A stretch of 64,000 nt of DNA, taken from Erythrobacter sp. (GTDB lineage Bacteria; Pseudomonadota; Alphaproteobacteria; Sphingomonadales; Sphingomonadaceae). The stretch's first letter is position 1. Every line of letters begins with the position of its first letter. The position numbers were made by a program, and so were the translations under genes. Under the pieces are notes generated by a model. It did not search any database. It saw only the letters and a program-made list of their open reading frames with translations, and was not told where the DNA came from. The stretch covers positions 1,974,001 to 2,038,000 of the forward strand of contig CP073261.1 of assembly GCA_019739335.1 (NCBI GenBank). Direction: 5' to 3'. Below are positions 45,638 to 52,423 of this stretch, in pieces.

Positions 45638-46019
45638 CCTGACGGGGACATGGGACGGGCAATTCGCCTATCCCGCCGGGACAGGTCCGGTCACGCCCTT
45701 CCTCGCCACGATCACCCAGAGCGGCGGCAACTTTTCAGGCAGCATCATCGAGCCGGACCTCTACCGGCCTTCCGCCACCACCGAAGCGGTGATCGCGGGT
45801 GTGGTGGCGGGCGCGGCGGTGGATTTCACCAAGACCTATCGCAAGGCGAGCATGGGCTATGAAAACCCCGTCGATTACGTCGGCCAGCTGAGCGAGGATG
45901 GCAATCGCATCTGGGGCGTGTGGAGCTTGCTCGAATGGAACGGTACCTTCGAGATGACCCGCTCCGAGAGCGTGAAAGTGGAGGAAGAGGCGCGGGCGAC
46001 CGAGGAGGTCGATCGCTAG
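45630..46019 (+). CDS. Hypothetical protein overlapping crtZ
   Basis: 129 residues from a GTG at 45630 that overlaps the crtZ stop by 8 bp, suggesting coupling; an ATG at 45606 further inside crtZ is less likely. The protein is a small beta-rich domain: 'LTGTWDGQFAYP', 'FLATITQSGGNFSGSIIEPD', 'VDYVGQLSEDGNRIWGVWSL'. The pattern of repeated G-x-W/G-x-I strands recalls calycin-like lipid-binding folds, but no family is recognised. No signal peptide. The 3' end overlaps DUF3422 by 4 bp. Confidence 0.72.
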   Translation: MPDLTGTWDGQFAYPAGTGPVTPFLATITQSGGNFSGSIIEPDLYRPSATTEAVIAGVVAGAAVDFTKTYRKASMGYENPVDYVGQLSEDGNRIWGVWSLLEWNGTFEMTRSESVKVEEEARATEEVDR

Positions 46020-47254
46020 GCTACCCCGCTTTCGCAGACACCCAGCAACCGCTTCTTGGCGAGGTGGATGCCCAGCCAGACCAGGAAGATCGTGGGCACG
46101 ACCAGCACCGCGACCACCGTTGCTCCGTCCACGCCCGGAAGGCCGTGCAAAGCCATTTCGACAAGGCCAAGCAGGTAATAGCTGAGCGCCACGACCGAGA
46201 GCCCTTCGACCAGTTGTTGCAGCCGCAGTTGCAGGCGCGAAGAGCGATCCATGCTGCGCATCAGTTCGGCGTTCTGGTTCTCGATCCGCGTATCGATCCG
46301 CGCCCGCAGCAAATTGCCGAGCCGGCCGGCGCGTTCGGACAATTGCTCGACCCGCACCGTCAGCGCTTCGCAGAACCGGACGGCGGGCTGGAAGCGGCGC
46401 TTGGTAAAGGTGTTGAGCGAGGCGAAACCGTCGATCGGGATGACCTGCAGTTCCTCCAGCCGTTCCTGCACCAGTTGCGCATAGGCCTGTGTGGCGCTCA
46501 TGCGATAGCCGATGATGGTCGCCACGGTGGTCAGCTCCAGCGAAAGCGAGGAAAGTTCCGCCATCAGCTCGTCATCGCGCTGGCCGCTGCCGCACAGGCG
46601 ATCAGCCAGCTTCGCCAGCTCGCTTTCAATGGCATCGAGGCGCGGCCAATGTTCCTGCGCCATCGGCAGGCCGAGCAGCGCCTTGTTGCGGTAATTGCCC
46701 AGTTCCTGCAGCCGCTGCACAGTGCGGGTAAAATCAAGATCATCCATGCCGTTGGCGGCCACCAGAAAATGCCCGAAGCCATCGCCTTGCAGGCGGAAAT
46801 CGGCCCACAGCCGCGCCTTTCCCCCGATCACGCAGGAGACGACTTCGTCGGTGGCAAAATGCATCTGCGGCAGCAGCCGTTGCGCTGCCCGATCATCTTT
46901 CAGCAGGGTGAGCCGCGAGGCGCGGACAATACGACCGGGCAGGTCCTGCGCCCAGGCCAGGGCTTCCGAAAGATCGGGATCGGCGCCGTTGGCAAACAGG
47001 GTCAGACTGCTGCCTTCGCTGTGCCGTTCCCAGGCGACCGAAATGCCCGGGGCAAAATGGCCCGCGCGGTGCGCTGCATTGGGATTTTCCGGCGGAGCGG
47101 GCAGGACCGCATCGAGATGGGCGGCCTCCGCAGCGCGCTCGTCTGGATCGGTCACCAGCACCCATTGCACGACCTTGCCCGGCACTGTGAGCGATGGCCA
47201 GCGGCGCAGGTGCATTTCCGATACCACCTGCCGTCGCAATTCATGTTCGCGCAT
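46016..47254 (-). CDS. DUF3422 membrane protein
   Basis: 412 residues from ATG 47254 (MREHELRRQVVSEMHLRRWP). The DUF3422 core is soluble and helical in its middle, with 'AELSSLSLELTTVATIIGYRMSATQAYAQLVQERLEEL' and 'TFTKRRFQPAVRFCEALTVRVEQLSERA'. Two C-terminal helices (SVVALSYYLLGLVEMAL and TVVAVLVVPTIFLVWLGIHL) place it in the inner membrane, much like a CorA-type layout. Function is unknown. Lies downstream of sufE in the same direction. Confidence 0.88.
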   Translation of the reverse strand: MREHELRRQVVSEMHLRRWPSLTVPGKVVQWVLVTDPDERAAEAAHLDAVLPAPPENPNAAHRAGHFAPGISVAWERHSEGSSLTLFANGADPDLSEALAWAQDLPGRIVRASRLTLLKDDRAAQRLLPQMHFATDEVVSCVIGGKARLWADFRLQGDGFGHFLVAANGMDDLDFTRTVQRLQELGNYRNKALLGLPMAQEHWPRLDAIESELAKLADRLCGSGQRDDELMAELSSLSLELTTVATIIGYRMSATQAYAQLVQERLEELQVIPIDGFASLNTFTKRRFQPAVRFCEALTVRVEQLSERAGRLGNLLRARIDTRIENQNAELMRSMDRSSRLQLRLQQLVEGLSVVALSYYLLGLVEMALHGLPGVDGATVVAVLVVPTIFLVWLGIHLAKKRLLGVCESGVA

Positions 47255-47329
47255 TGCTCTTGACCCCCGCTGGCGCGAGGATGGCAAATGCAGAGCAGTC
47301 CGGCAATACCGGCCTTGGCCCGCGACGGC

Positions 47330-47737
47330 TTAGCTGCTGGCGATCCGGCCTGCGTGTTCGCGCACCAGCGCAATCATGTTGGGTACGCCCTGGGTGCGGT
47401 TGGAGCTGAGCTGGTTCTTCAGATCGAACGGGGCCAACGCTTCGGCCACGTCCATCGCCGCTACTTCGGCCGCAGGACGGTCCTGTACCGCGGCGATCAC
47501 CAGCGCAACGATGCCCTTGGTGATGGCGGCATTGCTGTCTGCCAGGAAATGCAGCTTTTCTGCATCGCCGGTAGGATAGACCCACACCTGGGCCGAACAG
47601 CCGCGCACCAGAGTGGCATCGGTCTTGAGCGCGGCAGGCATCTCCTCCAGCTCGCGGCCCAGCTCGATCAGCAGGCGATAACGTTCGTCACTGTCGAGAA
47701 AATCGAATTCTTCGTGGATGTCGGTAAGGGTGCGCAT
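47330..47737 (-). CDS. sufE: SufE-family cysteine desulfurase activator
   Basis: 135 residues. Active-site Cys in 'LVRGCSAQVWVYP'; 'LDSDERYRLLIELGRELEEMP' and 'GVPNMIALVREHA' frame the fold. SufE takes persulfide from SufS for iron-sulfur cluster assembly. It follows the last psp-operon gene by 24 bp and could be cotranscribed with it; no sufS is nearby. Confidence 0.92.
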   Translation of the reverse strand: MRTLTDIHEEFDFLDSDERYRLLIELGRELEEMPAALKTDATLVRGCSAQVWVYPTGDAEKLHFLADSNAAITKGIVALVIAAVQDRPAAEVAAMDVAEALAPFDLKNQLSSNRTQGVPNMIALVREHAGRIASS

Positions 47738-47761
47738 GGCTGCGCATCTAGTGGATCGCGT

Positions 47762-48007
47762 CTACAAATCCACCCCGCTGGCAATCGCTTCCAGCTTGCG
47801 GATGCGTTCCTTGAGGTCGGCAATCTCGATCCGGGCCATGCCTTCGGGCGATCCGCGCTCACGCTCCGGCGGAAACTGGCGCATGTCCAGTTCGCGGTTC
47901 TTGAGCGCCAGCCAACTCTGCCAGCCCGCCAGCAGGGTGCCAGCCATGATTACCAGCGCCAGCAGCGCGGTGGCGGCAACAAGCATGTCGACTTCCATCA
48001 TCATCAT
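47762..48007 (-). CDS. PspB-like accessory membrane protein 6 (last psp gene)
   Basis: 81 residues starting with four Met codons (ATG at 48007 or any of the next three). One helix (LVAATALLALVIMAGTLLAG) near residues 9-28, then a charged coiled coil ending 'IADLKERIRKLEAIASGVDL'. This is the most diverged member of a set of six small proteins with the tail motif R-x-R/K-V-L-E-R-I-V-T-D. It lacks the EIExLR end. Separated by 20 bp from the preceding gene. Function unknown; probably an interactor of PspA or PspC by analogy with PspB. Confidence 0.8.
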   Translation of the reverse strand: MMMMEVDMLVAATALLALVIMAGTLLAGWQSWLALKNRELDMRQFPPERERGSPEGMARIEIADLKERIRKLEAIASGVDL

Positions 48008-48027
48008 GTACTCCCTGCCTCTCGTTC

Positions 48028-48273
48028 CTAATCGTCGCGCAGTTTCTCGATTTCCTCGGCGGTGCGCCGCGCCGGATCGGTGGCAATGCGTTCGAGCACT
48101 TTCACCCGCTCGCGCAAGGATTCCACCTCGTGCTCCAGTTCCTCTTCCCGCTCGCTGGGCAGCACGTCCTGGCGATCATTTGGCGGTGGAGCACCGCTGC
48201 CGGAGCGGGCGCGCATCAAACCGGCCACCGCGATAATCAACACGATCAGGACAATGGCGCTCCACATGCTCAC
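48028..48273 (-). CDS. PspB-like accessory membrane protein 5
   Basis: 81 residues from GTG 48273, which overlaps the upstream stop as GTGA; ATG at 48267 is an alternative. Helix near residues 5-20 (AIVLIVLIIAVAGLM), then an acidic linker and 'SLRERVKVLERIATDPARRTAEEIEKLRDD'. The tail shares VLERI-x-TD and EIEKLRD with its neighbours. Orientation likely N-out/C-in, as in PspB. Confidence 0.84.
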   Translation of the reverse strand: MSMWSAIVLIVLIIAVAGLMRARSGSGAPPPNDRQDVLPSEREEELEHEVESLRERVKVLERIATDPARRTAEEIEKLRDD

Positions 48274-48566
48274 AGAACCCTTTCTCCTTGCGTCTGGAGT
48301 TCGCGCAGGTCTTCGATCCGGCGCGAAAGATCGTTCGATGGATCGGTGACGATCCGTTCGAGCACGCGCAGCCGGTCTTCGAATTGCTGACTGGCTTCGT
48401 TCCCGCGCGCAATTTGGCCCGCCTTCGCTTCCTCGATCCGCGCTTGCAGTTCCAGTTTGCGTTCCTTGTGCTGGTGTTCGCGCCTGGTGAGGACGTAGGC
48501 GAAGGGAAAGATGATCATCAGCAACGCCACGATAAAGGCGAAGATCAGCATGAGGTCGCTGTCCAT
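48270..48566 (-). CDS. PspB-like accessory membrane protein 4
   Basis: 98 residues from ATG 48566, which overlaps the previous stop by one base (TGATG); a longer frame upstream runs through the neighbouring gene and is rejected. Helix near residues 5-26 (LMLIFAFIVALLMIIFPFAYVL), basic cytoplasmic coiled coil, and the tail 'FEDRLRVLERIVTDPSNDL' followed by RRIEDLREL. Tight coupling with both neighbours. Confidence 0.86.
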   Translation of the reverse strand: MDSDLMLIFAFIVALLMIIFPFAYVLTRREHQHKERKLELQARIEEAKAGQIARGNEASQQFEDRLRVLERIVTDPSNDLSRRIEDLRELQTQGERVL

Positions 48567-48907
48567 CAATTCGTCTCCTGCTTGCTGCGCAGGTTCTCGA
48601 TCTCGTGCGTCAGGTGGTAGCCACTGTCGGTGACGATCCGCTCCACATTGGCGAGGCGATCCTTCATCGAGCCGACTTCGGCGCGCAGCTGGGCGTTTTC
48701 CTGTGTCAGCAGCGTCACCCGTTCGAGCGCTTCGCTGGTGCCCTGCGGCTTTAGTGACTGGCCCCACATGCCTTCGAGCGGATAGCCGTTCTTGATCTTG
48801 AGTTTGGTGCTGTGGACCGAGGCCCATATCCCGGCGACCGAGATCACCACAGCTCCGGCCACGATCAGCGGGACATAGTTGAGAATGGCGGCAAGATCGG
48901 GGCTCAT
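48566..48907 (-). CDS. PspB-like accessory membrane protein 3
   Basis: 113 residues; the start overlaps the upstream stop as ATGA. Helix near 12-30 (VPLIVAGAVVISVAGIWASV), then 'NGYPLEGMWGQSLKP', a coiled coil with heptad Leu, and the tail 'KDRLANVERIVTDSGYHL' followed by EIENLR. The 'GYPLEGMWG' segment recurs as 'GYSLEDEWGG' in the next gene, so the two are close paralogues. Confidence 0.86.
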   Translation of the reverse strand: MSPDLAAILNYVPLIVAGAVVISVAGIWASVHSTKLKIKNGYPLEGMWGQSLKPQGTSEALERVTLLTQENAQLRAEVGSMKDRLANVERIVTDSGYHLTHEIENLRSKQETN

Positions 48908-49233
48908 GATACGCGTTCCTTGTTGGTGAAGTCCACCTGCAGGCCGTTACCGGGCGAGCGCGGACTATCGCGCAGCGCCTCGATTTCGGCGGCGACTGTG
49001 TAGCCCTTGTCGGTGACGATGCGTTCGAGCACGATCATGCGATCCTGCATTTTCTCCACCGTTTCCATCAGCTTGCGATTCTGGTCGGCGAGCGCAGCGT
49101 TCTGGCGGGTATCCGAACGGTCGGTCTTGCCGCCCCATTCGTCTTCCAGCGAATAGCCGTGCTTGGCGCGAATCCAGTTGTTCACCAGCCAGCCGATGGT
49201 GCTGATGGCGACGATCCAGATGACGAATTCCAT
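48904..49233 (-). CDS. PspB-like accessory membrane protein 2
   Basis: 109 residues from ATG 49233 (a GTG one codon earlier is possible), with the start overlapping the upstream stop (TGATG). Helix near 2-18 (EFVIWIVAISTIGWLV), the 'HGYSLEDEWGG' box, then coiled coil 'LADQNRKLMETVEKMQDRM' and tail VLERIVTDKGYTV, AAEIEALRD. A polar stretch of about 25 residues closes the protein. Confidence 0.86.
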   Translation of the reverse strand: MEFVIWIVAISTIGWLVNNWIRAKHGYSLEDEWGGKTDRSDTRQNAALADQNRKLMETVEKMQDRMIVLERIVTDKGYTVAAEIEALRDSPRSPGNGLQVDFTNKERVS

Positions 49234-49544
49234 CACACGTTCTCCCGCTTGGCAAAGGACACGGGCACGCCGTTGTCCGCCGCTTCAACAGAGCGGGTAT
49301 CGCGCAGTGCCTCGATCTGGGTGGCAATGTCGTAACCGCGATCGGTGACGATCCGTTCGAGCACCTGTACCCGGTCTTCGAGCCGCTGGATGTGCGTCGC
49401 ATATTGCGCGGCTTTCTCGGCGGTGTGCTCGGCGGTGGCACCGACTTGCATTTCGGCGATCTTCTGCTGGTGCTTAGACCAAATCGCGACGATCGGGATC
49501 ATGCAGCCGAAGATAATGGCAACGATCGGTATCAACTCACCCAT
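49233..49544 (-). CDS. PspB-like accessory membrane protein 1
   Basis: 103 residues from ATG 49544 (MGELIPIVAIIFGCMIPIVA), preceded by GAGGGGAACTACA; a TTG five codons earlier is rejected. One N-terminal helix, Lys/Gln/Ala-rich coiled coil, then 'RLEDRVQVLERIVTDRGYDI' and QIEALRDT. First of six accessory genes after pspC, 30 bp downstream of it. Confidence 0.87.
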   Translation of the reverse strand: MGELIPIVAIIFGCMIPIVAIWSKHQQKIAEMQVGATAEHTAEKAAQYATHIQRLEDRVQVLERIVTDRGYDIATQIEALRDTRSVEAADNGVPVSFAKRENV

Positions 49545-49574
49545 TGTAGTTCCCCTCAATGCGGTTCGGTGGGC

Positions 49575-49955
49575 TCAGCGCAGCCGTTCGATTTCGGCGG
49601 TCAGGCGCGGATTGGAATTGACGTAGAAGCTTTCCACTTCGGCCAGGCGACGATCGACATCCTTCATCTGCGCGCGGATTTCGCGGGCGGTGCGCTTGGG
49701 GTTCTGGCGAACGCGCTGCCAATATTGCGTTTCACCCGGATCGGCAGAGTAGAGGTGCGCGGGCTTCTTGTTCAGCAAGATTCCCATGATGATATAGATC
49801 GGAATGATGACGCCGCTGGTGATGAACACCATCATGATGGCACCCAGCCGGACCCACAAGGCATTCACCCCGGTATAGTCGGCAACGCCGGAGCATACAC
49901 CCAGGATCTTGCCATTCTGCTTGTCGCGATAAAGCGTTGTGCGGGGGCTGTTCAT
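49575..49955 (-). CDS. pspC: Envelope stress protein PspC with coiled-coil tail
   Basis: 126 residues. 'LYRDKQNGKILGVCSGVADYTGVNALWVRLGAIMMVF' is the PspC domain, followed by a second helix (VIIPIYIIMGILL). The tail of about 45 residues ends 'LAEVESFYVNSNPRLTAEIE' + RLR, which echoes the VERIVTD...EIExLR ending of the six accessory proteins. PspC with PspB senses membrane damage and releases PspF from PspA in enterobacteria. Start overlaps the pspB stop (ATGA). Confidence 0.94.
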   Translation of the reverse strand: MNSPRTTLYRDKQNGKILGVCSGVADYTGVNALWVRLGAIMMVFITSGVIIPIYIIMGILLNKKPAHLYSADPGETQYWQRVRQNPKRTAREIRAQMKDVDRRLAEVESFYVNSNPRLTAEIERLR

Positions 49956-50248
49956 TTCCGATTTCCCTTCTTTTCAGCAAGCAGTTCTTCCAGTTCGCGC
50001 AAGGGAACATTGTCCACTTCGCGATCGTGCTGGATGCGGGCGGGTTTAAAATCGACATTGTCGGCGGCAACGAGCCGCTCAACGGTGTCCATCCGCTCGT
50101 CCAGCCGCTTGGCAAGACTGTAGAGATCTTCCAGCAGCGCCTCGTCATCCGTAGTGATGGTGGCGGCGGTCTTCCACTTGGTCACGTAGTGGAGGATGAT
50201 CCAAGGCAGGGCGATGAAGATCGCCGCGACGATAAAAAACTCTTCCAC
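49952..50248 (-). CDS. pspB: Envelope stress protein PspB
   Basis: 98 residues from a GTG start, three bases after the pspA stop codon, with GGGGAA as ribosome site. Helix near residues 4-20 (FFIVAAIFIALPWIILHYV), then the cytoplasmic coiled coil 'YSLAKRLDERMDTVERLVAA' corresponding to the RMRERIQALESIL region of E. coli PspB. It is about 25 residues longer than E. coli PspB, with an added charged helix at the end. Confidence 0.9.
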   Translation of the reverse strand: MEEFFIVAAIFIALPWIILHYVTKWKTAATITTDDEALLEDLYSLAKRLDERMDTVERLVAADNVDFKPARIQHDREVDNVPLRELEELLAEKKGNRK

Positions 50249-50251
50249 GGT

Positions 50252-50950
50252 CTATTCCCCTTCACTTGTCTTGTCGGCGCTACTGCCCTTCCCGAGCAGG
50301 CGCTTCATTTCCTCCAGTTCCTCATCGACCCGGTCACCGCCTTCAAGAGCGGCGAACTGGTCTGCGAGGCTGCCGGTATTGCCCTGCGCGATGCTGAGCG
50401 AATCCGCCCGACCTTCGGCATAGTCCACCCGGCGTTCGAGCTGGTCGAAGCGGGTCAGCGCTTCGTCCACCCGTTCGTTGGTCATCAGGCTGCGCAGCTT
50501 GACGCGGTTTTCCGCGCTTTCCAGCCGTGCAGCGATCTGGGTCTGGCGGCTGCGGGCTTCGCGCAGCCGGTGCTGCAACTTGGCGATGTCCGCCTCGTAG
50601 GCGCGCAGGGCATCGTCGAGGACGGTGATTTCCTGCTTCAGCTGATCGATCATGTCGGTCGCCTTGCGCTTTTCCATCAGCGCGGCACGGGCCAGGTCCT
50701 CGCGATCCTTGCTCAGCGCGAGCTGGGCCTTTTCGCCCCAGTCGGCCTGCAACCGGTCCAGCCGCACGGTGTGGCGGTGCATTTCCTTCTGGTCGGCGAT
50801 CGTCCGCGCGGCGCTGGCGCGCACTTCCACCAGCGTTTCCTCCATTTCGAGGATGATCATGCGGATCATCTTCGCCGGATCGTCTGCCTGGTCGAGCAGC
50901 TCGTTGAAATTGGCAGCGATAATGTCACGGGTGCGGGAAAAAATACCCAT
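50252..50950 (-). CDS. pspA: Phage shock protein A (PspA/IM30)
   Basis: 232 residues from ATG 50950, which has a very strong GGAGGAAACTGG ribosome site and begins in the canonical way (MGIFSRTRDIIAANFNELLD). Long coiled-coil hairpin of the ESCRT-III-like PspA family. PspA binds and inhibits PspF in resting cells and coats damaged inner membrane under stress. The same frame stays open for another 47 codons to ATG 51091, which overlaps the stop of the upstream 51-residue gene; an N-terminally extended form is therefore possible. Confidence 0.95.
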   Translation of the reverse strand: MGIFSRTRDIIAANFNELLDQADDPAKMIRMIILEMEETLVEVRASAARTIADQKEMHRHTVRLDRLQADWGEKAQLALSKDREDLARAALMEKRKATDMIDQLKQEITVLDDALRAYEADIAKLQHRLREARSRQTQIAARLESAENRVKLRSLMTNERVDEALTRFDQLERRVDYAEGRADSLSIAQGNTGSLADQFAALEGGDRVDEELEEMKRLLGKGSSADKTSEGE

Positions 50951-51087
50951 CCAGTTTCCTCCGGAATAAAGTGCGCGTGCGGTAGGCGTGGGGCTGGTGC
51001 GGAGCCGCTCGATCTCCTGATCGAGCCGCGTGCCAACGCGCTTGAGCCCGTCACCGATCGGCACCAGCGGGTTCTTGCTGTGGTCGG

Positions 51088-51243
51088 TCATGCCAGTTCA
51101 ACCATCGGCGTGGCGGAGAGCAGCATCTCGTTGCCGGCAATGTCGTGCTGCATCTGTGCGAACACGGTGAAGGCGATCATCGCGGCAATGCTCACCAGCG
51201 CCGCATGGCCGAGCTGGGTGCGAAAGAAGCCGGACTTGAACAT
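51088..51243 (-). CDS. 51-residue membrane leader peptide of psp operon
   Basis: 51 residues (MFKSGFFRTQLGHAALVSIA and onward) with AGGAG upstream at 9 bp; the frame extends further up but through the promoter. One helix (about residues 13-29) and a short tail ending MVELA. It is the first gene behind the sigma54 promoter, in the same place as the two micropeptides of the second PspF locus, and similar to them in size and layout. Its stop codon overlaps an ATG in frame with pspA (ATGA). Confidence 0.75.
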   Translation of the reverse strand: MFKSGFFRTQLGHAALVSIAAMIAFTVFAQMQHDIAGNEMLLSATPMVELA

Positions 51244-51280: not shown

Positions 51281-51314
51281 TGCAACCCGCGTGCCAATTC
51301 GCAGGAATGGCGGA
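51281..51314 (-). promoter_or_regulatory. Sigma54 promoter of the psp operon
   Basis: On the minus strand, TTGGCACG (51297-51290) and TTGCA (51285-51281) match the sigma54 consensus exactly, GG and GC 10 bp apart. TCCGCCA (51314-51308) stands 10 bp upstream of the -24 box. Start of transcription near 51270, 27 bp before the leader peptide. Confidence 0.95.
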
Positions 51315-51397: not shown

Positions 51398-52423
51398 ATG
51401 GATCACAAGTCCCAATTTATCGGCCAATCGGGGGCCTTTCTCGATGCGGTGGAACGCGCCAGCCGCGCCGCGCCGATGGCCCGCCCGGTGCTGGTGATCG
51501 GCGAGCGCGGGACCGGCAAGGAACTGATCGCCGAACGCCTGCATCGCCTGTCCAACCGCTGGGAAGGGCCGCTGGTCACGATGAACTGCGCCGCCTTGCC
51601 GGAGACGCTGATCGAGGCGGAACTTTTCGGGCACGAGCAAGGCGCATTTACCGGTGCTACCAAGGCGCGCGAGGGAAGGTTCGAGGAAGCCGACGGAGGC
51701 ACGCTATTTCTCGACGAACTGGGCACCTTGAGCATGGGCGCGCAGGAACGGCTGCTGCGAGCGGTGGAATATGGCGAAGTGACGCGAATCGGGTCCAGCC
51801 GCCCGATCCGGGTGGACGTGCGGATCGTCGCCGCCACCAACGAAGACCTGCCGCGCATGGCTGAGGAAGGCCGCTTCCGCCCCGACCTGCTCGACCGGCT
51901 GAGTTTCGAGGTGATCACCCTGCCGCCGCTGCGGGTGCGCGAAGGCGATATCCAGGTGCTGGCCGAATATTTCGGGCGGCGGATGGCGGCGGAACTGGGG
52001 TGGGAGCAGTGGCCGGGATTTACCGATCACATTGCCTTCGCGATGGAAGACTATCCGTGGCCGGGCAACGTGCGCGAACTGCGCAACGTGGTGGAGCGTG
52101 CAGTCTATCGCTGGGACAACTGGGAACAGCCGATCGGCGAAGTGGCCTTCGATCCGTTCGAGAGTCCATGGAAGCCGATCGCCCCGCCGGTCCATGCCAC
52201 GGGGACTGCTCCCACAAGCAAGCCGACTACCGCACCCGCTTCAACGCCCCGCTTCGACCGTGTAGATGATCTGCGCAGCGCGGTAGACGCGCACGAAAAG
52301 GCGATTCTCGAATATGCGCTGGGTGCCAACCGCTGGAACCAGCGCCAGACCGCCAAGGCGCTAGGCCTGACCTATGACCAGCTACGCCACTGTATCAAGA
52401 AACACGATTTGACGGCGGCTTAG
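51398..52423 (+). CDS. pspF: Sigma54 enhancer-binding activator PspF
   Basis: 341 residues from ATG 51398, which aligns with the E. coli PspF start; ATGs at 51371 and 51386 fall in the operator. There is no N-terminal receiver domain, as in PspF. Walker A GERGTGKE (35-42), GAFTGA (82-87) for sigma54 contact, Walker B TLFLDEL, and a C-terminal Fis-type helix-turn-helix (RWNQRQTAKALGLTYDQLRH). PspA would inhibit it. Divergent from the psp operon and probably also controls the locus at 36.3 kb. Conserved Pro/Thr linker precedes the HTH. Confidence 0.96.
   Translation: MDHKSQFIGQSGAFLDAVERASRAAPMARPVLVIGERGTGKELIAERLHRLSNRWEGPLVTMNCAALPETLIEAELFGHEQGAFTGATKAREGRFEEADGGTLFLDELGTLSMGAQERLLRAVEYGEVTRIGSSRPIRVDVRIVAATNEDLPRMAEEGRFRPDLLDRLSFEVITLPPLRVREGDIQVLAEYFGRRMAAELGWEQWPGFTDHIAFAMEDYPWPGNVRELRNVVERAVYRWDNWEQPIGEVAFDPFESPWKPIAPPVHATGTAPTSKPTTAPASTPRFDRVDDLRSAVDAHEKAILEYALGANRWNQRQTAKALGLTYDQLRHCIKKHDLTAA

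What the first reader, a model, noticed from the sequence alone, without database searches (positions are those of the whole stretch)
47762..51243. Expanded psp operon with six extra PspB-like small membrane proteins
After pspA, pspB and pspC, six more genes follow on the same strand with 4-bp or 1-bp overlaps or short gaps. Every product has one N-terminal helix and a cytoplasmic coiled coil. Five end in variants of V-L-E-R-I-V-T-D followed by E-I-E-x-L-R. The tail of PspC itself ends in a matching pattern (VESFYVN...AEIERLR), and E. coli PspB has RIQALESILD at the same place. This points to repeated duplication of PspB into a family of membrane-linked coiled-coil proteins that could form a hetero-oligomeric sensor or a scaffold for PspA. 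Enterobacterial psp operons have one PspB. I know of no description of such an array, but I could not search.
Basis: partly seen in the sequence, partly recalled or inferred. Interest (0 to 1): 0.93.

Follow-up and report, generated by a model that had tools for sequence, protein, structure and literature searches.

The report
Sphingomonad psp operons carry PspC-tail arrays
The membrane-stress operon of this sphingomonad bacterium carries six extra small genes, part of an array of one to eight such genes seen across its bacterial family, most of whose products resemble the membrane protein PspB and the tail of its partner PspC and are predicted to give the membrane-repair protein PspA extra docking sites.

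Summary
Six short coding genes (47762-49544, minus strand) follow pspABC with 1-4-bp overlaps or short gaps, behind a sigma-54 site facing pspF. Five products end in (V/N)-(L/V)-E-R-I-(V/A)-T-D...I-E-x-L-R.

The interpretation needs correcting. By profile the tails match PspC's C-terminal half about as well as PspB, and only the PspC match reaches the last residues. A tree puts PspB on one branch and PspC tails on another; AU tests reject derivation of the array from sphingomonad PspB (p 7e-5) or PspC (p 0.002). A single unlinked gene of this kind sits outside psp in related families, so a third family probably moved into the operon and multiplied. The sixth gene, a6, links only through its siblings.

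The array is family-wide (its profile hits 235 of 236 sampled genomes). Members are diverged, long-kept paralogs (median 39.6% identity within a locus). Three genomes keep array genes without PspB; one of them also lacks PspC's tail.

Best mechanism (inferred): natural counterparts of E. coli PspC40-119, docking PspA at the membrane. Ravi et al. 2024 mention "PspB duplicates" in one clause, so this is a new variant of a known kind.

The parts
51281..51296 (-). sigma-54 -24/-12 site TGGCACGCGGGTTGCA upstream of the operon
   Evidence: Only exact match in 64 kb. An exact site lies in the 840 bp ahead of pspA in 78 of 122 relatives' loci, against 10 of 366 random slices of the same loci.
51398..52423 (+). 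pspF, divergent sigma-54 activator
   Evidence: TIGR02974 477 bits, cut-off 444; divergent homologue upstream in 69 of 80 named loci.
51088..51243 (-). small 51-aa predicted membrane protein, first gene of the operon
   Evidence: Hydropathy 2.01 at residues 11-29; homologue ahead of pspA in 63 of 80 named loci; no Pfam or NCBIfam match.
50252..50950 (-). pspA
   Evidence: TIGR02977 276 bits, cut-off 243.
49952..50248 (-). pspB (canonical)
   Evidence: TIGR02976 88 bits, cut-off 51.7; PF06667 69 bits, cut-off 25.6.
49575..49955 (-). pspC (canonical, with C-terminal tail)
   Evidence: TIGR02978 127 bits, cut-off 104.
49233..49544 (-). array gene a1, single-TM protein with PspC/PspB-like tail
   Evidence: TIGR02976 E 8.6e-5 and TIGR02978 positions 49-120 E 0.0012, both below cut-off; profile-profile.
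48904..49233 (-). array gene a2
   Evidence: hhalign 91% to PspB, 92% to PspC tail.
48566..48907 (-). array gene a3
   Evidence: hhalign 96% to PspC tail (reversed control 47.5%), 82% to PspB.
48270..48566 (-). array gene a4
   Evidence: TIGR02978 positions 40-121 E 3.6e-4, below cut-off; hhalign 90% PspC, 71% PspB.
48028..48273 (-). array gene a5 (GTG start)
   Evidence: hhalign 90% to PspC tail, 9% to local PspB, 85% to outgroup PspB.
47762..48007 (-). array gene a6, divergent; conserved tail RIEIADLKERIRKLEAIA(A/S)GVDL
   Evidence: 22-sequence alignment with 12 invariant columns; hhalign 85-94% to a1, a4, a5, none to PspB/PspC; present in 76 of 76 scored named loci.
47330..47737 (-). sufE-like gene that ends the conserved block (boundary, not part of the array)
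   Evidence: PF02657 122 bits, cut-off 27; downstream of the array in 76 of 76 scored named loci.

Best explanation
The six genes after pspC encode short proteins with one predicted N-terminal membrane helix and a tail that, for five of them, is related by profile comparison to the C-terminal tail of PspC and to PspB; they likely act as extra inner-membrane docks that bind PspA. Shown: the gene array, its family-wide conservation, the tail relationship, and a tree position separate from PspB and PspC. Inferred: the operon is transcribed from the PspF/sigma-54 promoter. Under membrane stress PspF would make PspA and, with it, several different membrane-anchored copies of the PspC-type switch tail. 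As reported for the E. coli fragment PspC40-119 (one membrane helix plus tail), such proteins would bind PspA (and PspB in the membrane), pull PspA away from PspF and hold it on the bilayer. This would both sustain the response (positive feedback) and supply many docking points for PspA assemblies. The differing middle segments (for example the GYPLE..WG stretch of a2 and a3) would give each dock its own partner or membrane context. a6 would be a variant dock or spacer. Evolution (inferred): an unlinked single-copy relative, still found outside psp in other Sphingomonadales families, was recruited into the operon and multiplied early in the family.
For: Profile similarity to the PspC tail up to its last residues, and to PspB. 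Own-genome scan with the array profile finds the array, PspC's TM2-plus-tail and a6, nothing else at E<=0.001. E. coli PspC40-119 binds PspA and PspB in two-hybrid tests and induces psp when overproduced even without PspB; leucine-zipper mutants lose PspA binding (PMC3068692 sections 20-22). In the ON state the cytoplasmic C-terminal domain of PspC binds PspA (PMC5596341 passage). Operon signs: single exact sigma-54 site, divergent pspF, no minus-strand terminator-like site among the array genes, 231 of 254 internal array junctions overlapping by 4 or 1 bp in 80 named loci. The array profile hits 235 of 236 sampled genomes of the family (a few single hits may be PspC's own tail). Three genomes have array genes and no PF06667 match anywhere (G042, G123, G163); in G042 the PspC protein also stops after its core (TIGR02978 positions 3-67 of 121) while its two array proteins match the later positions. 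In family f8, four of the five psp loci read (L177, L179, L199, L202; not L178) pair a tail-less PspC core with a separate single-TM tail protein.
Against: No interaction, expression or phenotype was tested. All six score below curated PspB and PspC cut-offs. Helical tails inflate profile scores: one reversed control reached 47.5% (a3 against PspC). With the outgroup alignments (10 PspB, 9 PspC) PspB matched better than PspC for a1, a2, a4 and a5, which favours the PspB-partner rival; on rechecking I lowered this reading from 0.50 to 0.47 and raised that rival from 0.27 to 0.30. a6 shows no direct similarity to PspC or PspB. Full-length PspC, not the 40-119 fragment, was needed for stress-dependent induction in E. 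coli, and that paper's model placed the PspC tail in the periplasm, with a proposed topology switch. The AlphaFold2 model of a1 is one long helix with pTM 0.33, which says little. A sigma-70-like promoter match lies inside the array (48935-48906), at chance frequency. The tree rests on about 80 columns. PspB loss is seen in few genomes and could be unrelated to the array.
Confidence: 0.47

Rival explanations
1. The array proteins are PspB-like partners of PspC rather than PspA docks: they bind the PspC tail or membrane helix, hold it in the OFF state or tune which stress releases it, so the cell has a mixed population of sensors.
For: Single-TM architecture and operon place as in PspB; profile similarity to PspB, better than to PspC for four of five when outgroup alignments are used; PspB absent in three array-bearing genomes, as if an array member had taken its place; PspB of E. 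coli binds PspC through the membrane region.
Against: The end of the tail (EIExLR), shared with PspC, has no counterpart in the PspB matches; the tree keeps PspB apart; PF06667 still finds a PspB in 288 of 297 genomes of the order.
Confidence: 0.3
2. They are PspA-independent envelope-protection effectors (as PspB/PspC are for mislocalised secretins, or as PspG), co-regulated with psp but not part of its switch.
For: PspB and PspC protect Yersinia cells from secretins without PspA (PMC3467454 passages); unlinked relatives exist outside psp in other families.
Against: Tail similarity covers the part of PspC that binds PspA; a second PspA locus in one genome keeps pspC plus an a6 gene (L155).
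Confidence: 0.14
3. One reading: repeated duplication of this lineage's PspB.
For: Shared single-TM layout and the L-E-x-I core; profile matches to PspB.
Against: AU test rejects array plus sphingomonad PspB as one clade (p 6.9e-5); PspB is its own 100/100 branch.
Confidence: 0.05
4. The shared tail is convergence of unrelated membrane-anchored coiled coils, or chance.
For: Short amphipathic helices; all scores below curated cut-offs; generic coiled-coil models also match some members; one high reversed control.
Against: PspB leads the Pfam scan and PspC then PspB the NCBIfam scan; reversed controls were 9% or less in 44 of 45 profile pairs; R, ER, TD, I and L positions of the tail are 90% or more conserved in 64 array proteins.
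Confidence: 0.03

Closest known systems
'PspB duplicates' in psp operons, Ravi et al. 2024 mSystems (PMC11237479; example AOL22920.1)
   Same: Extra PspB-type genes inside a pspFABC operon; the same paper calls the C-terminus of some PspC a divergent PspB.
   Different: One clause in the text (section 17 read); array size, family-wide spread, separate ancestry, PspB loss and split PspC are not in the section and passages I read, and the main text holds no word beginning 'sphingo'. Figure 3, Table S3 and the web app could not be seen. The organism of AOL22920.1 was not verified.
PspC C-terminal half, E. coli PspC40-119 (PMC3068692)
   Same: One membrane helix plus helical tail; profile match over the corresponding half of PspC.
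   Different: There it is part of PspC or a laboratory truncation; here it is several separate genes without the PspC core.
PspB (PF06667, TIGR02976)
   Same: Small single-pass protein encoded next to pspC; shared L-E-x-I core.
   Different: Below cut-off, separate branch in the tree, extra EIExLR end.
Zymomonas mobilis psp genes (PMC3495753)
   Same: A psp gene cluster with a hypothetical gene (ZMO1062) proposed as part of the regulon; pspA, pspB and pspC rise under ethanol (passages).
   Different: The hypothetical gene was not compared here; no array described in the passages seen.

Membership tests
PspB (PF06667 / TIGR02976) | Score above curated cut-off | tested here: not met
   Best of the six is a1: 16.1 of 25.6 bits, 22.8 of 51.7 bits.
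PspB (PF06667 / TIGR02976) | Single N-terminal membrane helix followed by a helical tail | tested here: met
   Hydropathy for all six; AlphaFold2 helix 5-90 for a1 only, mean pLDDT 74.6.
PspB (PF06667 / TIGR02976) | Groups with PspB in a tree | tested here: not met
   PspB is its own 100/100 branch; AU p 6.9e-5 against array plus sphingomonad PspB.
PspB (PF06667 / TIGR02976) | Binds PspC and controls psp induction | not testable with these tools
   Needs two-hybrid or cross-linking.
PspC (PF04024 / TIGR02978) | N-terminal PspC core domain | tested here: not met
   No PF04024 match in a1-a6 at E<=1.
PspC (PF04024 / TIGR02978) | C-terminal TM2-plus-tail half | tested here: met
   a1, a3 and a4 match TIGR02978 below cut-off in its C-terminal half, to position 120-121; a1-a5 profiles 73-96%; 36 of 64 array proteins match TIGR02978 at E<=0.1. 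Weaker (15-73%) against outgroup PspC, and not met for a6.
PspC (PF04024 / TIGR02978) | Tail binds PspA | not testable with these tools
   In print only for E. coli and Yersinia PspC.
psp operon (PspF/sigma-54 regulon) | Sigma-54 promoter, divergent pspF, uninterrupted same-strand genes | tested here: met
psp operon (PspF/sigma-54 regulon) | Co-transcription and stress induction of the array | not testable with these tools
   No transcript data held.

The most novel reading that the evidence does not exclude
In Sphingomonadaceae the psp sensor has become modular: the PspA-binding switch tail has been taken out of PspC's hands and spread over an ancient, diversified set of one to eight separate membrane-anchored proteins that assemble into mixed receptors, each paralog reporting a different membrane defect to PspA, so that in some lineages PspB and even PspC's own tail have become dispensable.
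Probability: 0.3. Interest if true: 0.82.

Novelty: new variant of a known kind. Interest (0 to 1): 0.62.

Why it matters
How PspA (a bacterial ESCRT-III relative) is brought to damaged membrane, and what PspB/PspC sense, remain open. A family in which PspC-type tails exist as many separate natural proteins, with genomes that have lost PspB or the PspC tail, gives ready-made material to test which part recruits PspA and whether different tails report different stresses. The standard Pfam PspB model finds a single match in most genomes of the order (about 267 of 297 by hand count), so much of the psp system of this widespread family is invisible to it; of the listed array relatives that carry a name, most are 'hypothetical protein'.

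Tried and rejected
A literature search for PspBC with AlphaFold found nothing; PspB with PspC and Novosphingobium found nothing. PDB sequence searches with the array profile and PspC gave only generic coiled coils and weak, unrelated matches, so no solved relative by sequence. AlphaFold2 models gave helices; I ran no fold search because a single long helix matches everything. Phage search with a5 and plasmid search with a1 found no match. My first census undercounted the window (5 instead of 6) because overlapping ORF starts were merged; one search replaces it. One search stopped on a script error and was rerun. The 247-aa antisense ORF 47288-48031 was set aside as spurious because it covers conserved a6 and sufE. 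I considered calling the genes PspB and did not, since cut-off and tree tests fail.

Results against my reading: the reversed control for a3 against PspC reached 47.5%; a5 against local PspB only 9%; a6 none; outgroup PspB matched a1, a2, a4 and a5 better than outgroup PspC; PspB is kept in 288 of 297 genomes; one f8 locus (L178) and 13 f8 genomes show no tail protein; one sampled genome of the window's family (G243) has no array hit, and also no PspA or PspB hit. The long-kept-paralog point weakens when only distant loci are compared: array proteins closer to an own-locus neighbour are 0 of 334 against all loci and at PspA identity under 90%, 2 of 334 under 85%, 21 of 334 under 82%. Rows dropped: named loci L041, L076, L083, L094 (contig ends) and L170 from the census; second psp loci L155 and L180 not counted; the careful tree used 91 of the 159 rows of the quick one.
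Full report
WHAT IS THERE. The minus strand between 51243 and 47762 holds a small 51-aa gene, pspA, pspB, pspC and six further genes, a1 to a6, followed by sufE; pspF is divergent. From pspB to a5 every junction overlaps by 1 or 4 bp except a 30-bp gap after pspC; a5-a6 is 20 bp. The only exact sigma-54 -24/-12 match in the 64 kb (TGGCACGCGGGTTGCA, 51281-51296) precedes the operon. No terminator-like site on the minus strand lies among the array genes; one sigma-70-like match does (48935-48906); both kinds of site are at chance frequency in the region. Against seven relatives, third codon positions differ most in all six genes.

WHAT THE PROTEINS RESEMBLE. Each product has one N-terminal hydrophobic stretch. 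Single sequences score below cut-off: a1 hits TIGR02976 (PspB) at E 8.6e-5 and TIGR02978 (PspC) positions 49-120 at 0.0012; a4 hits TIGR02978 positions 40-121 at 3.6e-4. Alignment A1 holds 64 array proteins: five from the window, 59 from relatives, chosen for diversity. Scanned one by one at E<=0.1, the model matched by most members was PspB in Pfam (21 of 64; next bZIP_1, 10) and PspC (36) then PspB (31) in NCBIfam. Profile-profile comparison joins a1-a5 to each other at 98-99.9%, to PspC of the same family over 35-44 columns at 73-96%, and to PspB of the same family at 71-91% for a1-a4 and 9% for a5, mostly over 24-28 columns. Against outgroup alignments (10 PspB, 9 PspC) the figures are 25-96% for PspB and 15-73% for PspC, PspB being better for all but a3. 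a6 joins a1, a4 and a5 at 85-94% but not PspB or PspC. Reversed-profile controls gave 9% or less in 44 of 45 pairs; a3 against PspC gave 47.5% reversed against 96% forward. In the window's own genome the array profile finds a1-a5, PspC's TM2-plus-tail (model positions 4-82 of 85) and a6, and nothing else at E<=0.001.

HOW WIDESPREAD. Of 80 named Erythrobacteraceae-type loci fetched with PspA, 76 could be scored: array size 2 to 8, median 5; all 76 have a6 and a downstream sufE. In 11 loci of other families of the order, 10 scored: eight have none, two have one. Across 297 genomes of the order, the array profile hits 281; by hand count 235 of 236 genomes of the window's family (f1) and 46 of 61 others. 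Some hits are PspC's own tail, a6 or PspB, so match counts are not copy numbers. Outside the order it is rare: 25 of 289 in the class sample, which includes five family members and many weak hits that look like PspB.

DIVERGED, LONG-KEPT PARALOGS. In the named loci 231 of 254 internal array junctions overlap by 4 or 1 bp. Array proteins of one locus share a median best identity of 39.6%, against 76.5% with the best counterpart in another locus; 0 of 334 is closer to an own-locus neighbour. Because many loci are close kin, I repeated this with only loci whose PspA differs more: under 90% identity 0 of 334, under 85% 2 of 334, under 82% 21 of 334. Types such as a2 (NNWIRAKHGYPLEDEWGG) and a3 (KNGYPLENSWGK) recur across genera.

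ORIGIN. A quick tree of 159 rows and a careful tree of 91 of them put PspB on one branch and PspC tails on another (careful: 100/100 each), with array, a6 and orphan proteins outside both. Holding array plus sphingomonad PspB together is rejected (p 6.9e-5), as is array plus sphingomonad PspC tail (p 0.0022). The tree has only 80 columns, its bootstrap had not settled, and the PspC group was tested after the first tree had been seen. In ten genomes of other families of the order (f2, f5, f6, f7) a single 71-86-aa protein of the same layout is encoded away from psp (L191-L198, L200, L201; 1.5 kb read on each side). Similar proteins outside psp occur in another family of the class (L187, L237) and in more distant families of the phylum (L238-L241). 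In family f8, four of five psp loci read show pspABC, then a PspC core without tail, then a separate tail protein (L177, L179, L199, L202; not L178). The simplest reading is recruitment of a third, PspB/PspC-tail-like family into the operon, then multiplication early in Sphingomonadaceae. This order of events is inferred.

NATURAL EXPERIMENTS. PF06667 finds no PspB in 9 of 297 genomes; four are of this family: G042, G123, G163 and G243. G243 also lacks PspA and array hits. G123 and G163 keep pspA, pspC and three array genes (L215, L216). G042 keeps pspA, a PspC that ends after its core (TIGR02978 positions 3-67 of 121), and two array genes (L144). G278 has only a weak PspB hit (E 9.2e-4) and keeps an array. 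These suggest that array proteins can stand in for PspB and perhaps for the PspC tail; the number of cases is small.

MECHANISM. In E. coli, PspC40-119, one membrane helix plus C-terminal domain, binds PspA and PspB and, when overproduced, induces psp even without PspB; its zipper mutant loses PspA binding; yet only full-length PspC supports stress-dependent induction, and the authors' model had this domain in the periplasm with a possible topology switch (PMC3068692, sections 20-22 read, other passages). In Yersinia the cytoplasmic C-terminal domain of PspC binds PspA in the ON state, which frees PspF (PMC5596341, passages). That PspC's tail also binds PspB's tail in the OFF state is recalled (Flores-Kim and Darwin 2015), not read here. 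Array proteins have the layout of PspC40-119. I therefore commit to extra PspA docks that would also make induction self-sustaining; PspB-like modulators of PspC are the main rival. Nothing here tests binding.

WHAT IS KNOWN. Ravi et al. 2024 (PMC11237479; outline with abstract, section 17 and passages read) state that PspB duplicates appear in some operons, citing AOL22920.1, and that PspC can be fused to a divergent C-terminal PspB. Popp et al. 2022 (PMC9239133; passages) has no word beginning 'sphingo' in its main text, and the one passage on duplication concerns PspA and PspC. Searches for these genes in sphingomonads (listings only) showed no paper on such an array; two searches listed only the top 12 and 15 of many. 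Subscription papers and supplements were not searchable. In the homolog search (120 of 6345 hits listed, 8000 candidates scored) most names given are 'hypothetical protein', a few 'Phage shock protein B'.

VERDICT. A new variant of the psp system, with a plausible but untested mechanism.

Noticed in passing
window 50252-51091 (-): The pspA frame stays open 47 codons upstream of the MGIFSRT start, to an ATG overlapping the small ORF's stop by 4 bp. Many relatives show a similar open extension (called PspA ORFs of 276-321 aa with -4 overlap). A longer PspA or a leader peptide is possible.
   Followed up: partly
window 51088-51243 (-): First gene of the operon encodes a 51-aa single-helix protein without any Pfam or NCBIfam match; a homologue is ahead of pspA in 63 of 80 named loci.
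   Followed up: partly
L060, L062, L072, L096 and others, between a6 and sufE: An extra 57-59-aa ORF overlaps a6 by 4 bp in many Erythrobacter/Qipengyuania-type loci; absent in the window.
   Followed up: no
L155, L180: Second psp-like loci in two genomes of the family: pspA paralog plus pspC, one of them with an a6 gene, neither with pspB.
   Followed up: partly
L177:2936-3190, L179:3040-3276, L202:1308-1475, L199:1222-1449: Tail-less PspC core proteins (55-84 aa) following pspC, next to a separate tail protein, in one other family of the order.
   Followed up: yes
L037:6981-7639: Two pspC-like genes in tandem (94 and 126 aa) in one named locus.
   Followed up: no
L187 and L237: In another alphaproteobacterial family two adjacent tail proteins (64 and 76 aa) lie near dut-like and coaBC-like genes, not near psp (neighbour names recalled from sequence).
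   Followed up: partly
window 46016-47254 (-): A 412-aa DUF3422 protein (PF11902, 401 bits) after sufE, with homologues downstream of sufE in some of the named relatives.
   Followed up: partly
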